DNA from: Micromonospora sp. NBC_01699
GTDB lineage: Bacteria > Actinomycetota > Actinomycetes > Mycobacteriales > Micromonosporaceae
Reading direction: 5' to 3'
Assembly: GCF_036250065.1 (NCBI RefSeq)
Contig: NZ_CP109199.1
Span: 6,014,001-6,078,000 of the forward strand
Length of the DNA: 64,000 bases
Shown here piece by piece: positions 7,030 to 49,745 of the stretch. Under the pieces are notes generated by a model, which worked only from the letters and a program-made list of their open reading frames with translations, was not told the origin of the DNA and made no database searches. A program made the position numbers and the translations under genes. Within the stretch, counting starts at the first letter, position 1; every line of letters starts with the position of its first letter.

Positions 7030-7138
7030 CGCTCCTCCTAACGGTACGGCCAGAGCCAGTTGCACCCCAACCACCCTCAGTAACACCGACACTAAGCCCC
7101 AGGTACGACAAACCCACCCCCCTCCCTCCCGACCGCCC

Positions 7139-7196
7139 CTAATACAGAGAATGAGTGGCTATCCAGCGATGAATAACCACTAATTCTCTGTATTAG
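7139..7196. repeat. AT-rich intergenic palindrome (site 1)
   Basis: Arms 7139-7163 and 7172-7196 are inverted repeats with three mismatches (7153/7182, 7159/7176, 7163/7172); the outer 14 bp (CTAATACAGAGAAT) pair perfectly. The loop is 8 nt. The element is far more AT-rich than its surroundings, preceded by a C-rich tract (about 7110-7138) and followed by a G-rich tract (7229-7255). It lies between two genes on the minus strand, so it is not a convergent terminator. Confidence 0.9.
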
Positions 7197-7204
7197 TGCA
7201 CGCG

Positions 7205-7231
7205 GCACCGGCGCGCGGAGCGCGCCGGTGC
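7205..7231 (-). terminator. Hairpin after the NYN gene
   Basis: A 12-bp perfect GC stem (7205-7216 with 7220-7231), 24 nt beyond the NYN gene stop on the minus strand. There is no T-tract, so it is a likely but unproven terminator. Confidence 0.6.
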
Positions 7232-7255
7232 GGGGGGCGGGGGCGGGGGCGGGGG
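7232..7255 (+). other. Potential G-quadruplex
   Basis: Four runs of five or more G separated by single C on the + strand abut the stop codon of the NYN gene. The matching minus-strand transcript would be a C-run. The sequence meets the standard G3+N1-7 pattern with very short loops. Confidence 0.7.
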
Positions 7256-8656
7256 TTAGGAGCGGGAGAGGCGGCGGAGGAGGGAGTCGGCGCCGAGGGG
7301 GTAGGCGCCGTGGCGGCGTACGCCGTCGGCGACCTCGCGGTCGGAGGAGACGACGATCACCGGGCGGCCGGCGGGTTCGGCCCGGACCAGGCGGCGAATC
7401 AGGTCGTCGGCGGTTTCGCCCTTGCGGGAGAAGAGCACCCGTACGCCGCGCGGCGCGGGTGGCAGCCCGTGCATCCGTTCGGCGCCGTCGAAGACCACGG
7501 TGACCTCGGCACCGGTCTGCGCGGCCAGTCCGCCGAGGCCGGTGATCAGGCGTTTGCGCTGCTGCTCCAGCGACATCTCGCCGAAGCCCCGCTTGGTGAC
7601 GTTGTAGCCGTCCGCCACCAGGTGCACCCGGGGCATGGCGAGCAGTTCGTCGAGCCGGGCCGGGTCGTCGGTGTCCAGCGCGCGGGCGGAGGTGGCCGAC
7701 GCCGGGCGGTCGGCGAACGCCTCGGCGACGTAGTCGGCCGGCATCCGGTCGGCCGGGTCGAGCGCCAGTTCCCGGCGCAGCCCGACGGCGGCCTGGCCGA
7801 TCGTCTCCAGCAGCAGCCAGAGCCGGGCGTCGTCGACCGAGCGGGCCTCCTTGGCGGTCTGCCGGGTGGCACCGGCGACCGCCTCGGCCTCGGCCAGCCG
7901 GGCCCGCAGGCGGCGCAGTTCGGCGTCGTGATCGGCGCCGATCCGGGCGGCCCGGCCCTTCTCGGTGGCCAGCATCTCGCTCGCCTTGCGTTCCCTGGCC
8001 TGGGACTCGCGCAGCGTCCGGCCCAGCACCCGGGACTCCTCGCGGAGTTGGCCCAGTTCCTCCCGGACCCGGGCCAGCTCGTCGCGGAGCTTGTCGGCCT
8101 CGACCCGGGCGACGGCGCGGTCGTGTTCGGCCCGGGTGGCCCGCTGTTCGGCCTCCCGGACCAGTTCGGCGACCACCGCGCTGTCCGCCTCGGCCCGGAC
8201 CGCGACCCCGGCCGCCTCGACCAGGCCGCGCCAGCCGCGCGGGCGGACCAGGTACGCGAGCGCGGCGACCTCCACCGGGTCGGCTGCCGCCGGGGCGGTG
8301 CCGGCGAGTACGGCCGCGCCCAGCTCGCCCGCGTCGCCGAGCACCCGTTTGGTGATCCGTTGCCGGAACAGCGGGTCGCCGGCGAGTTGGCCGGCGATCA
8401 TCGGGGCGCCGAGCCGGGCCCGGCGGTTGGGCGCGAACTTGGCCACCCGGCGCAGCGGTACGGGCAGTTCCTCGTTCGGCAGGCCGGACAGGGCGACGGC
8501 GGTCAGCGCGACGATCCGTTGCCGGACCGGTTCGGGCAGTACGGGCTCCGGTTCGAGGTCGAGGACTTCGTCCTGCTCACCATCCCCGTCGACGGCCGGC
8601 ACGGCGGCCACCCCCGGTTCGGGGAGGCGGTCGTCGGTCGGTTCGCTGAGGGGCAT
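7256..8656 (-). CDS. NYN-domain (PIN-like) RNA-binding/nuclease-like protein
   Basis: The protein is 466 aa. The acidic N-terminus (1-40) leads to a helical region, then a long coiled coil rich in Arg/Glu (about 160-275). The C-terminal NYN/YacP-like domain (about 335-460) shows VHLVADGYNVT, VTVVFDGAE, a SRKGETADDLI motif and VIVVSSDREVAD, which supply the conserved acidic residues of the metal site. YacP-type proteins are PIN-fold ribonucleases or RNA-binding factors; the coiled-coil architecture is common in actinobacteria. The divergent neighbour is the exonuclease/GIY-YIG gene 126 bp away. The domain call is firm; the substrate is unknown. Confidence 0.82.
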   Translation of the reverse strand: MPLSEPTDDRLPEPGVAAVPAVDGDGEQDEVLDLEPEPVLPEPVRQRIVALTAVALSGLPNEELPVPLRRVAKFAPNRRARLGAPMIAGQLAGDPLFRQRITKRVLGDAGELGAAVLAGTAPAAADPVEVAALAYLVRPRGWRGLVEAAGVAVRAEADSAVVAELVREAEQRATRAEHDRAVARVEADKLRDELARVREELGQLREESRVLGRTLRESQARERKASEMLATEKGRAARIGADHDAELRRLRARLAEAEAVAGATRQTAKEARSVDDARLWLLLETIGQAAVGLRRELALDPADRMPADYVAEAFADRPASATSARALDTDDPARLDELLAMPRVHLVADGYNVTKRGFGEMSLEQQRKRLITGLGGLAAQTGAEVTVVFDGAERMHGLPPAPRGVRVLFSRKGETADDLIRRLVRAEPAGRPVIVVSSDREVADGVRRHGAYPLGADSLLRRLSRS

Positions 8657-15188: not shown

Positions 15189-15292
15189 GTGCTTCCCCCC
15201 TCGCATCGTTGGACAACCCCCGCGTACCCCGTTCCCCACCCCCCACGCAACCAATTCCCCCACCCACCTCCGCCCCACCCCGCCCCCCGGCT

Positions 15293-15355
15293 CGTTGATC
15301 ATGAAGTTAACAACCTCCGGAGGCCGGATCATGGTCGCTAACTTCATGATCAACG
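15293..15355. repeat. Intergenic palindrome, GTTGATCATGAAGTTA family (site 2)
   Basis: Inverted arms of 23 bp (15293-15315 and 15333-15355) with two mismatches flank a 17-nt loop. The same sequence family and the same 23-17-23 geometry recur at 28244-28306. A C-rich tract (about 15200-15290) precedes it and a G-rich tract (15356-15385) follows. Both mismatches would become G-U pairs in a minus-strand transcript. Confidence 0.95.
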
Positions 15356-15358
15356 CAC

Positions 15359-15380
15359 GGGGTCTGGGGGTGGGGGTGGG
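15359..15380 (+). other. Potential G-quadruplex
   Basis: Four G-runs (4, 5, 5 and 3 G) separated by loops of 3, 1 and 1 nt on the + strand, immediately right of the palindrome at 15293. Only sequence pattern supports it. Confidence 0.6.
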
Positions 15381-15388
15381 AAAGGGGC

Positions 15389-15419
15389 GTGGCGCCCGCC
15401 GGGGTTTGGCGGGCGCCAC
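15389..15419 (-). terminator. Terminator of the qcr operon
   Basis: Perfect 12-bp stem (15389-15400 with 15408-15419) and 7-nt loop, 22 nt after the qcrB stop on the minus strand. Confidence 0.7.
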
Positions 15420-15441
15420 GTTAGAGGTGGGGGTGGGGTGG

Positions 15442-22736: not shown

Positions 22737-22812
22737 AAGCCGTCGACCGGGGATCCGGCGGTGGTCGACCAAGGAGGTCGAACCACCGGGACGGGTCCCC
22801 GGTCGACGGCTT
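22737..22812. terminator. Large two-stem bidirectional hairpin
   Basis: Outer arms 22737-22753 and 22796-22812 pair perfectly over 17 bp. Inside, 22760-22770 pairs with 22776-22787 (11 bp plus one bulged T) around a 5-nt loop. It lies between the converging trpD and ctaF genes and probably ends both transcripts. Confidence 0.78.
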
Positions 22813-27383: not shown

Positions 27384-28226
27384 ATGTCGACCAACGAAGA
27401 GCAGATTCGGGCGCTGATCGGGCGCTGGGCCGAGGCGGTGCACGGCGGGGACCTGGACGGGGTGCTCGCCGACCACGCCAAAGATGTGGTGATGTTCGAC
27501 GTTCCGCCGCCGTACGAGGGGGTGCGCGGGCTCGACGCCTACCGGGAGACGTGGCCGCCCTTCTTCGAGTGGCAGCGCACGGGCGCCTCGTTCGAGATCG
27601 AGTCGCTGGAGGTGACCGCCGGCGACGACGTCGCGTTCGCGTACGCCCTGGCGCGCTGCGGGACCGAGCAGGATCTCGCCGCCAACCCGGCCAGTCGCCT
27701 GCGACTGACCTTCGGCCTGCGCAGGGAGAACGGCTGCTGGCTGATCGCCCACGAACACCACTCGTTCCCGCTGGCCGACCCGGAAGACAACAATCCCGAC
27801 GCCGAGCGGGAGGTGCGGGAGCTGCACGAGCGGTGGTTCGCCGACACCGCCGCGAACGACCTGGACAGCATGATGGCCGTCATCGCCGACGACGTCGTCT
27901 CGTACGAGCACGAGGAGCCGCTGCGCTACGTCGGCGTCGACGCCGTACGCGAACTCTGTCAGCGCAACCTCGACGCCGCTCCCGGTGAGACGGCCGTGAG
28001 CTGGACGGTGCCCGACCTGAAGATCCTGGTACGCGGTGACCTGGCCGTCGCCTGGGGCCTCAACCACGTACGCATCGAGCCGCCCGACGCCCCGGCCATC
28101 GACAGTTGGTCCCGTGGCACCCGGGTCTTCGAACGCCGCAACGGCACCTGGCTGCTAACCCACCAACACCTGTCCGTCCCCTACTCCCCCACCACCGGCG
28201 CGGCCCGAACCGACCTCCAGCCCTGA
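27384..28226 (+). CDS. Tandem SnoaL/NTF2-like protein
   Basis: The protein is 280 aa and made of two similar halves: about 1-135 (EEQIRALIGRWAEAVHGGDLDGV ... HEHHSFPLA) and about 136-270 (EVRELHERWFADTAANDLDSMMAVIADDVV ... THQHLSVPY). Each half reads as a SnoaL/DUF4440-type NTF2-like cone domain with a buried pocket, used by ketosteroid isomerase-like enzymes and ligand-binding proteins. A fused pair is less usual than single-domain members. No catalytic function can be named. It lies 66 bp after the DUF397 gene and could share its transcript. Confidence 0.82.
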   Translation: MSTNEEQIRALIGRWAEAVHGGDLDGVLADHAKDVVMFDVPPPYEGVRGLDAYRETWPPFFEWQRTGASFEIESLEVTAGDDVAFAYALARCGTEQDLAANPASRLRLTFGLRRENGCWLIAHEHHSFPLADPEDNNPDAEREVRELHERWFADTAANDLDSMMAVIADDVVSYEHEEPLRYVGVDAVRELCQRNLDAAPGETAVSWTVPDLKILVRGDLAVAWGLNHVRIEPPDAPAIDSWSRGTRVFERRNGTWLLTHQHLSVPYSPTTGAARTDLQP

Positions 28227-28243
28227 CCCGAGCCGTCAAGAGC

Positions 28244-28306
28244 CGTTGATCATGAAGTTAGCGACGGATTTTCCGAGTTCAGGCGTCGCTAACTTCATGA
28301 TCAACG
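28244..28306. repeat. Intergenic palindrome, GTTGATCATGAAGTTA family (site 3)
   Basis: Arms 28244-28266 and 28284-28306 pair perfectly over 23 bp around a 17-nt loop. This is the same sequence family and geometry as 15293-15355. It lies between converging genes, 17 bp after the NTF2-like gene, and could terminate both here. Confidence 0.95.
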
Positions 28307-28339
28307 AAGGCAGGCGACCGGTGGGAGGCCGACCGGGGG

Positions 28340-28837
28340 TTACTGGAGGTAGGTGAGGATGGCGGGGAGGGGGTCGCCGGGGATGGAGGTGTCGACGACC
28401 AGGCGGGGGCCGATGTAGGGCTCGTACTCGGCGCGGCGGACCAGGGTCTGTTCCCAGGTGGGGACCAGGGGGGCGGCAACCCGCTCTTCCACCCGGCGGC
28501 GGTGTTCGGCCTCGTCGGCGCACCAGACCTCGATCACCCGCAGCGGCACCCCGGCCCGCTCGGCCAGATCGTGCCAGAGGCCACGGGCCGAGGCGACCGG
28601 GTTGACCGCGTCGACGATCACCGGCAGGCCGAGGCCGAGCTGCACCTCGGCCAGCGCGGCGACGCTGCCGTACGAGATCAGGCCGGCCTGGTCGTTGAAG
28701 ACGCCGTGCTCGGCGAGCACTCGTTCGATCGGGTCGACCGGCAGCACCGGGGCGTTCAGGGCCGCCCCGAGCCGGGCCGCCAGGGTGCTCTTACCCACCC
28801 CGGGCAGCCCGGCGAACGCGACGAGGTGTCCGCTCAC
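28340..28837 (-). CDS. AAA/P-loop kinase
   Basis: The protein is 165 aa. A Walker A motif GLPGVGKST (about residues 10-18) is followed by VIVDAVNP as a Walker B/DxxN-like strand and an Arg-rich lid (RRRVEERV). This fits small zeta-toxin/shikimate-kinase-like P-loop phosphotransferases in the AAA_33 family; the substrate is unknown. The GTG at 28837 overlaps the stop codon of the PfkB kinase gene by 4 bp. It ends 33 bp from the palindrome at 28244. Confidence 0.8.
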   Translation of the reverse strand: MSGHLVAFAGLPGVGKSTLAARLGAALNAPVLPVDPIERVLAEHGVFNDQAGLISYGSVAALAEVQLGLGLPVIVDAVNPVASARGLWHDLAERAGVPLRVIEVWCADEAEHRRRVEERVAAPLVPTWEQTLVRRAEYEPYIGPRLVVDTSIPGDPLPAILTYLQ

Positions 28838-32612: not shown

Positions 32613-32643
32613 AGGAAGGGCCCCGGTGACCGGGGCCCTTCCT
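32613..32643. terminator. Strong bidirectional terminator
   Basis: Perfect 14-bp stem (32613-32626 with 32630-32643) and 3-nt loop, 7 nt after the MFS stop. It is also 26 nt past the glycerate kinase stop, so it can serve both converging genes. Confidence 0.85.
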
Positions 32644-49430: not shown

Positions 49431-49582
49431 CTCGCGTCTCCCCTCACCGATGTCCCCGACGGACCCCGCCAGCCTAGCCGTCCGACAGCACCCCTCGATC
49501 CCCCGCGCACCCCGACCCCCCACCCCACCCACCCCCACCCCCAAACCCCACCCCCCCACGCCCCCCACGCCCCACATCGCCC

Positions 49583-49644
49583 CGCGATCTAGGGCATATG
49601 GTGGTGATTGGAGATCATCAAGCACGTATTTGCCCTAGATCGCG
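49583..49644. repeat. Intergenic palindrome (site 4)
   Basis: Arms 49583-49596 and 49631-49644 (CGCGATCTAGGGCA and its complement) pair perfectly over 14 bp, and the pairing continues imperfectly inward. The loop of 34 nt is AT-rich. Sequence differs from sites 1-3, but it has the same C-tract/palindrome/G-tract setting, here between divergent genes. Confidence 0.9.
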
Positions 49645-49745
49645 AGCGTGGGGCGAGCGTGGGGCGGGCGTGAGGCGGGCGTGGGGAGGGGGTGGGGAGG
49701 GGGTGGGGAGGGGCACCTCGCGGGTCGATAGGTGGGTGGGCGATC

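What the first reader, a model, noticed from the sequence alone, without database searches (positions are those of the whole stretch)
49480..49745. C-tract / palindrome / G-tract units at four intergenic sites
At 7139, 15293, 28244 and 49583 an AT-richer palindrome sits where the + strand changes from C-rich to G-rich; the site at 49.6 kb is the clearest, with about 100 nt of near pure C/A/T on the left and about 90 nt of G-rich on the right. The flanks could pair and extend the stem. Neighbouring gene orientations differ at each (same-strand, same-strand, convergent, divergent), so simple termination does not explain all of them. The weakest flank bias is at 28.2 kb. Whether this class has been described before is unknown to me.
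Basis: partly seen in the sequence, partly recalled or inferred. Interest (0 to 1): 0.72.

Follow-up and report, generated by a model that had tools for sequence, protein, structure and literature searches.

The report
Palindromes that skew their flanking DNA
In this actinobacterium small scattered DNA palindromes are bordered by a C-rich stretch on one side and a G-rich stretch on the other, and comparison with sister species indicates that the bias arises where a palindrome sits, even inside neighbouring genes, which points to an undescribed local bias in how DNA changes.

Summary
The four sites are the only places in the window with a strong C-left/G-right switch; none has the opposite polarity. 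They belong to dispersed palindrome families of Micromonosporaceae: A (15293, 28244), B (49583), C (7139); a fourth, D, lies elsewhere. In 1.6 Mb of this genome 49 of 52 family palindromes have both flanks skewed (>0.2), against 4 of 94 other intergenic inverted repeats.

A syntenic sister genome (about 90% identity) gives the key result. Orthologous sites without the palindrome have little or no skew. Where it is present, the strand running toward it has fewer G (C or A instead) within about 200 nt on both sides, at all codon positions. Gene ends without elements are symmetric. The bias is seen beside gene 3' and 5' ends.

Best explanation: a mobile REP-like palindrome at which a DNA-level process, perhaps recurrent breakage and biased resynthesis, drives strand-asymmetric substitution; the enzyme is unknown. 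Main rival: selection for two-way Rho-dependent terminators. No Y1/RAYT transposase (PF01797) was found, and the searches made showed no earlier description.

The parts
49583..49644 (.). Family B palindrome (core GATC...GATC of 56 nt, 49586-49641) between two divergently transcribed genes
   Evidence: 71 places match the family B pattern in this genome; core length 56 in 18 of 18 copies examined in 1.6 Mb
49483..49582 (+). C-rich left flank of the 49.6 kb unit
   Evidence: C skew 0.82 (80 nt)
49645..49738 (+). G-rich right flank of the 49.6 kb unit
   Evidence: mirrored skew 0.64 (80 nt)
7139..7196 (.). Family C palindrome (CTAATACAGAGAATGAGTGGCTATCC...)
7059..7138 (+). C-rich left flank
   Evidence: 0.61
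7197..7277 (+). G-rich right flank, running into the 3' end of the minus-strand gene 7256-8656
   Evidence: 0.43
15293..15355 (.). Family A palindrome (CGTTGATCATGAAGTTA...)
15213..15292 (+). C-rich left flank
   Evidence: 0.73
15356..15436 (+). G-rich right flank
   Evidence: 0.51
28244..28306 (.). Family A palindrome between convergent genes
28164..28243 (+). C-rich left flank, mostly inside the 3' coding end of the gene 27384-28226
   Evidence: 0.44
28307..28386 (+). G-rich right flank, running into the 3' coding end of the minus-strand gene whose end is at 28340
   Evidence: 0.55

Best explanation
The units are copies of several small dispersed (probably mobile, REP-like) palindrome families. 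SHOWN: the palindrome is the constant part; the C-rich and G-rich flanks are weak or missing at orthologous sites that lack it; compared with the genome that lacks it, the genome that has it shows C or A in place of G, and some C in place of T, on the strand running 5'->3' toward the palindrome, on both sides, over about 200 nt and at all codon positions. INFERRED: that these are changes made after the palindrome arrived (supported by composition and by an outgroup at two sites), and that the palindrome is the recurrent focus of a DNA-level process acting outward in both directions with mirror symmetry. Sequence-specific recognition or cruciform extrusion would lead to a break or gap, and short-range processing plus error-prone resynthesis would misread G on the strand that ends 3' at the palindrome. 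Repeated over time this turns the flanks into C tracts on one side and G tracts on the other. The enzyme, and whether the lesion is on the toward strand or is cytosine damage on the other strand (for example in outward R-loops), is not known. By-product, inferred: each unit becomes C-rich, G-poor RNA followed by a hairpin in both directions, which may serve as a two-way Rho-type terminator.
For: Specificity: 49 of 52 family palindromes v 4 of 94 other intergenic inverted repeats with both flanks >0.2. A dispersed GGGCCC palindrome family of G001 (6 copies in 120 kb, arms up to 27 bp) has no copy with both flanks >0.2. Empty orthologs in G002: median split score 0.13, 1 of 15 at >=0.29; shared orthologs 17 of 17 at >=0.29. 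Differences at 0-150 nt from G000 elements absent from G002: G>C 108 v C>G 19, G>A 85 v A>G 17, T>C 40 v C>T 8, fading by 300 nt; the three G002-only elements repeat it independently, G>C 32 v 4, G>A 26 v 2. By site: more G loss than gain in 16 of 17 sites with >=60 aligned columns, 355 v 66; 294 control intergenic points 2844 v 2934. Codon positions 1+2 as well as 3: divergence 0.115 v 0.063 and 0.295 v 0.175, so the excess has passed about the same filter as ordinary mutations. Controls: 568 gene 3' ends without element, symmetric, 0.168 at position 3. Third codon positions on the 3' side: G 0.15, C 0.74 within 75 nt against G 0.42, C 0.52 far away; mirrored on the 5' side (G 0.57, C 0.33 at 75-150 nt, n=413 positions, 28 genes). 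Polarised with G001 at the two of three sites where G001 is also empty: G000 lineage G>A 30, G>C 26, against C>G 1, A>G 1.
Against: C on the toward strand is changed less often than background near new elements (at 50-100 nt C>G 0.014 v about 0.05, C>T 0.007 v about 0.03). This is expected if selection or repeated rewriting favours C and is harder to get from a one-way mutation process alone. At shared (older) sites third-position divergence is near normal (0.195 v 0.168), so no strong ongoing rate increase is visible there. One of the 17 testable sites goes the other way (1 v 6, a family D element). In the sister-genome comparison the only three genes that start within 120 nt of a shared element show no mirror bias (C 0.46, G 0.37, 97 positions), unlike the pooled set. 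No neighbour-base signature was found and no enzyme was identified. The polarity on the top strand (G lost left, C lost right) is the reverse of that seen for cytosine deamination at bidirectional resection in yeast (PMC6786661, section 8), so plain deamination of resection overhangs does not fit. The same families have weak flank skew in some other genera: 2 of 8 D loci outside this genus (not counting G010) and 0 of 3 B loci have both flanks >0.2, and one G001 family A copy has 0.10/0.39, so the palindrome alone is not sufficient. Polarisation by G001 is disturbed by convergence: at the same two sites the G002 lineage shows an apparent opposite excess (C>G 10, A>G 11 v G>C 1, G>A 2).
Confidence: 0.5

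Rival explanations
1. Selection for two-way Rho-dependent terminators: the flanks are C-rich, G-poor Rho-loading sites on RNA arriving from either side, and the palindrome is the pause or 3'-end-protecting hairpin.
For: Anatomy matches the published Rho motif closely: about 78 nt with C>G, then a hairpin (PMC6407284, passages read). Elements favour convergent gene ends: 100 convergent, 54 tandem, 9 divergent of 163. C on the toward strand looks protected. The skew persists in shared, older copies.
Against: The skew is nearly as strong on gene-5' sides (mean 0.54, n=70) as on gene-3' sides (0.61, n=152), mirrored inside 5' coding sequence in the pooled set, and present in 4 of 4 divergent regions. 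It lies inside translated sequence, where a Rho site should not work, and includes changes at codon positions 1+2. Other inverted repeats at gene ends mostly lack such flanks. It would need very many fixations per site within about one species-divergence time.
Confidence: 0.25
2. The unit moves as a whole (C tract + palindrome + G tract), so the skew is inserted, not acquired.
For: In the six clean G000-only cases the extra stretch is 77-254 nt against a palindrome of 56-70 nt. C runs of 3-5 are in excess while runs >=7 are rare, as if built of units.
Against: Aligned, retained coding sequence outside the insertion itself differs, C/A in place of G, at synonymous and other positions. Flank sequences are not visibly shared between copies (by eye).
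Confidence: 0.1
3. Selection for a DNA structure: G-quadruplex/i-motif-forming tracts or an extended cruciform around the palindrome.
For: 71 of 104 flanks carry a four-run C3+ motif, against 57.2 (sd 3.9) in shuffles; C runs of 3-5 are in excess; own flanks pair better than foreign flanks.
Against: No in-register pairing. The bias reaches about 200 nt into coding sequence as scattered single changes. Runs of 6 or more are depleted.
Confidence: 0.1
4. The palindromes insert preferentially where a C-to-G switch already exists.
For: None beyond the association itself.
Against: Empty orthologs lack the switch: median 0.13, 1 of 15 at >=0.29 in G002 (0.32) and two at 0.27; 0 of 3 in G000.
Confidence: 0.02

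Closest known systems
REP/REPIN elements with RAYT transposases
   Same: Short, dispersed, mostly extragenic palindromes in many copies, in distinct families, with lineage differences in copy number (B pattern: 71, 12 and 9 in G000, G002, G001).
   Different: No Y1-transposase (PF01797) match in this genome. No GT(A/G)G head at the hairpin foot (by eye). Arms around an asymmetric, partly conserved core, with nearly fixed length. Strand-biased flanks, not mentioned in the passages read of PMC3116915 and PMC2817692.
Rho-dependent terminators (RUT site followed by hairpin)
   Same: C-rich, G-poor stretch of about 80 nt leading into a hairpin (PMC6407284, passages).
   Different: Mirror-symmetric on both sides, far stronger than the mean C/G of 1.6 reported there, reaches into translated sequence and, in the pooled set, into 5' coding ends.
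Strand-switching mutation clusters at double-strand breaks (yeast, APOBEC3A; PMC6786661)
   Same: Mutations change strand at one centre, symmetric about a break.
   Different: Opposite polarity for cytosine damage; no neighbour-base context found; bacterial, evolutionary time scale; centred on a repeat.
Short inverted repeats with local mutability in human tumours (PMC5737083; search listing and start of abstract only)
   Same: Inverted repeats raise mutation locally.
   Different: Here other inverted repeats mostly show no such flanks; certain families do, and the effect is strand-asymmetric over about 200 nt.

Membership tests
REP/REPIN-RAYT | dispersed extragenic palindromes in many copies | tested here: met
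   copies; intergenic
REP/REPIN-RAYT | a cognate RAYT (Y1 transposase) in the genome | tested here: not met
   PF01797: 0 matches in G000 at E <= 0.001, found in 5 of 14 control genomes
REP/REPIN-RAYT | GT(A/G)G head at the palindrome foot | tested here: not met
   by eye in the 52 elements printed; definition from PMC2817692 passages. A GTGG lies inside the D arms, not at the foot
MITE | target-site duplication and a parent transposon | tested here: inconclusive
   insertion junctions lie in rewritten DNA (by eye); no parent element searched for beyond PF01797
Intrinsic terminator | G+C-rich hairpin followed by a T run | tested here: not met
   the strand leaving the palindrome is G-rich; T on it is 0.13-0.14 in the first 40 nt on average (complement); arms are AT-richer
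Rho-dependent terminator | 70-80 nt C-rich G-poor RNA before a hairpin or pause site | tested here: met
   sequence level only; definition
Rho-dependent terminator | site is ribosome-free RNA downstream of translation | tested here: not met
   skew also within coding 3' and 5' ends; the non-coding part of each flank would qualify
Rho-dependent terminator | Rho-dependent transcript 3' ends at the site | not testable with these tools
   no RNA data
Break-centred mutation cluster by cytosine deamination on resected ends | 5'C-3'G mutated-base order on the top strand | tested here: not met
   order here is G lost on the left, C lost on the right v
Known structured RNA | match to an Rfam family | tested here: not met
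   none at gathering threshold in the window

The most novel reading that the evidence does not exclude
A bacterial mobile palindrome system with a trans-acting factor that recognises these palindromes and directs sustained, strand-asymmetric mutagenesis of the DNA on both sides, reprogramming codon choice and protein ends of neighbouring genes over about 200 nt: a bacterial analogue of a targeted hypermutation locus.
Probability: 0.3. Interest if true: 0.93.

Novelty: categorically new. Interest (0 to 1): 0.8.

Why it matters
If the changes are mutational, a 56-70 nt repeat creates a local, directional mutation field at more than a hundred places in a genome (B and D patterns alone match 71 and 49 places). 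That would break the usual assumption that synonymous sites near gene ends evolve under one mutation bias, and would give a natural reporter for a DNA-repair or R-loop process. If they are selected, this is the strongest compositional signature of two-way termination that I know of (recalled, not searched) and would bear on how gene ends are punctuated in high-G+C bacteria without T runs. The two readings can be told apart by direct experiment.

Tried and rejected
Pre-existing skew as insertion target: rejected by empty orthologs. Palindromicity alone: rejected by other inverted repeats, 82 G+C-richer and 12 AT-richer ones, of which 4 of 94 have both flanks >0.2, and by the GGGCCC family of G001. 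Transcription or replication direction as the cause: rejected because the bias is mirror-symmetric at tandem, convergent and divergent sites. In-register stem extension by the flanks: not supported. A deaminase-like neighbour motif: none seen. RAYT: no PF01797 match. Rfam: nothing in the window. Ku is present in the genome, which does not discriminate. Literature: (arm sequences) gave one unrelated hit; searches gave no description of these repeats or of such flanks in the titles and abstract starts listed (capped lists; the full texts of those hits were not read, apart from passages of PMC8269248). Searches were for comparison families.

Weak points of my own counts: genes were called by a simple codon-score finder. 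Inverted repeats are those with score >=14, mostly intergenic, with a gene on each side. Of 36 G000 elements in the aligned block 2 could not be mapped and 2 had long gaps; of 27 G002 elements 4 and 1. Of the 15 'empty' sites only 6 have a short orthologous gap (<120 nt); the others lie in longer, partly rearranged DNA. One of the 18 empty sites had no aligned columns within 200 nt and dropped out. G001 polarity was tried at 3 sites only; at one of them (6399684) G001 itself carries the palindrome, so G002 may have lost it. One search pooled 173 elements, 163 of them with a gene on each side. In one search the genome of loci L316, L317 and L323 was not printed; I infer G055/G074 from the tally, and a script to print the labels returned ids only. 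One search stopped with a script error and was repeated. One search aligned one locus in the wrong orientation and is not used.

Full report
WHERE IT IS. The window is bases 6014001-6078000 of an 8.28 Mb chromosome in a genus with three held genomes, G000 (own), G001 and G002. A 19-base arm of family A matches 97 stretches; of the 80 listed, nearly all are named Micromonospora or other Micromonosporaceae (Verrucosispora, Allorhizocola, strain KJ-029) and one is an Aeromicrobium MAG. So the window belongs to or near that family.

CHECK OF THE OBSERVATION. A scan of the window for opposite skew on 80-nt flanks finds four places at >=0.35, exactly these; the reverse polarity finds none. Gene orientations are as stated.

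WHAT THE PALINDROMES ARE. They are dispersed repeats: 83 exact matches to a 15-base arm of A (both arms counted), 57 to an 11-base arm of B, 14 to a 14-base arm of C with up to one mismatch. Two-arm patterns give 71 B in G000, 12 in G002, 9 in G001, and 49, 50 and 0 D. D also occurs in 38-61 copies in the three g24 genomes G025, G055 and G074, 51 in G064 (g44) and 8 in G010 (g9). In all, 7 of 81 family genomes have D and 6 of 81 have B at this stringency. In the 1.6 Mb read here A copies are 60-61 nt (10 of 10), B 56 nt (18 of 18) and D 68-70 nt (20 of 20) between the arm ends, with conserved arms and an asymmetric, more variable core. At one orthologous site G000 has B and G002 has D (position 6241296).

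SPECIFICITY OF THE SKEW. Among intergenic inverted repeats found de novo in 1.6 Mb, both 80-nt flanks exceed 0.2 in 49 of 52 family members (A 9/9, B 17/18, C 8/9, D 15/16) and in 4 of 94 others. Average composition of the strand running toward the palindrome at 20-40 nt is C 0.64, G 0.12, A 0.14, T 0.10; the skew fades to about zero by 250 nt. Intergenic regions with a family motif pass a split test (>0.3) in 37 of 44 cases, those without in 9 of 479. In a scan of all 1.6 Mb, coding included, 51 of 53 strong switches carry an exact family motif and the two others look like diverged C and D; the reverse polarity occurs once. In the stretches, 68 of 86 distinct family A copies have both flanks >0.2 and 4 have a flank below zero.

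COMPARISON WITH THE SISTER GENOME. 800 kb of G000 and 800 kb of G002 were aligned (about 607 kb in the chain, 89% mean identity). Of 36 G000 elements, 17 are shared, 15 are absent from G002 and 4 could not be placed; of 27 G002 elements, 19 are shared, 3 are absent from G000 and 5 could not be placed. Shared sites: the G002 side keeps the polarity in 17 of 17 (>=0.29; median 0.39), although flank sequence and length differ freely. Empty sites: median 0.13; 1 of 15 reaches 0.29 (0.32) and two stand at 0.27; in the other direction 0 of 3. So the switch is not a pre-existing target.

BASE CHANGES. Written other>filled on the toward strand, 0-150 nt from G000-only elements: G>C 108 v C>G 19; G>A 85 v A>G 17; T>C 40 v C>T 8; G>T, A>T and C>A about even; by 300-600 nt the classes are roughly balanced. 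G002-only elements give the same independently (G>C 32 v 4, G>A 26 v 2). At shared sites G>C is near even (99 v 77), with a G>A (91 v 45) and A>C (87 v 46) excess in G000. The third codon position shows the effect most clearly (G>C 89 v 13, G>A 47 v 2), but positions 1+2 do too (30 v 10, 42 v 14), with total divergence raised about 1.7-1.8 fold at both. Gene 3' ends without an element: 568 genes, symmetric, 0.168 at position 3 and 0.062 at 1+2. Site by site, 16 of 17 sites with enough columns show the excess, 355 v 66, against 2844 v 2934 at 294 control points; one control reaches the element median. With G001 as outgroup at three sites, two are empty in G001 and show G>A 15 and 15, G>C 6 and 20 in the G000 lineage within 220 nt, against C>G 1 and 0; the G002 lineage there shows C>G 10 and A>G 11 in sum, which I read as convergence of G000 and G001. 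The third site carries the palindrome in G001, with weak skew there (0.10/0.39); its G000 lineage still shows G>C 11 v 4 and G>A 10 v 1.

BOTH SIDES, BOTH GENE DIRECTIONS. Over 163 elements with a gene on each side, from several genomes (100 convergent, 54 tandem, 9 divergent), third codon positions of genes ending toward the palindrome go from G 0.42/C 0.52 far away to G 0.15/C 0.74 within 75 nt, with A rising from 0.03 to 0.09. Genes starting next to it show the mirror image, G 0.57/C 0.33 at 75-150 nt (n=413), and approach background beyond 150-225 nt. Intergenic flanks: mean 0.61 next to 3' ends (140 of 152 >0.2), 0.54 next to 5' ends (64 of 70). Against this, three genes starting near shared elements in the sister-genome set show no mirror bias.

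MECHANISM. A cause tied to transcription or replication direction cannot be mirror-symmetric at tandem sites, so the process is centred on the palindrome. It acts on DNA, or on RNA from both sides. In favour of mutation: it overrides codon choice and protein sequence, lies inside translated regions, hits codon positions in about the usual proportions, appears within about one species-divergence time, and is slightly weaker in G000-only copies than in shared ones (own split median 0.46 v 0.53; third-position G 0.22 v 0.17). In favour of selection or repeated rewriting: C on the toward strand is changed less than background, and divergence at shared sites is nearly normal. The lack of skew at most other hairpins, and weak skew of the same families in some other genera, suggest a trans-acting partner. 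I commit to biased resynthesis or lesion processing at the palindrome (0.5), with two-way Rho termination as the main rival (0.25). The flank-plus-hairpin anatomy fits the published Rho motif, so it may work like a terminator even if it did not arise as one.

WHAT IT IS NOT. Not a REPIN with its RAYT (no PF01797 in G000), not an intrinsic terminator (no T run), not in Rfam (window), and not a cytosine-deamination cluster on resected ends (wrong polarity). No earlier description was seen in the searches, judged from listings; the library lacks most subscription journals. Papers: PMC6786661 abstract, outline and section 8; PMC6407284, PMC3116915, PMC2817692 and PMC8269248 passages only; all others search listing only.

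Noticed in passing
G000 6241296 (outside the window) and its G002 ortholog: The same intergenic position holds a family B palindrome in G000 and a family D palindrome in G002, joined to matching outer bases: the palindrome seems to have been exchanged in place.
   Followed up: partly
G001 1997490-2036542 (loci L307-L309); window 32613-32643 is similar: Another dispersed palindrome family with AGGAAGGGCCCC arms (6 copies in 120 kb, up to 27 bp arms with a 3 nt loop) and no copy with both flanks >0.2: a natural negative control, perhaps terminators.
   Followed up: partly
flanks of the 52 elements in G000: C runs of 3-5 are in excess but runs of 7 or more are rare (18 observed, 90 in shuffles), so the tracts are not simple homopolymers.
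   Followed up: no
G000 3.62-5.78 Mb: No exact family A arm lies in this 2.1 Mb stretch although 83 occur in the genome; B, C and D do occur at 4.0-4.4 Mb.
   Followed up: no
loci L311, L315-L318, L322, L323, L325: Family D palindromes in other genera (G064, G025 and, inferred, G055/G074) have weak flank skew, which hints at a host factor.
   Followed up: partly
window 22737-22812: Imperfect G+C-rich inverted repeat with 21 nt arms and a 34 nt loop between convergent genes, without skew.
   Followed up: no
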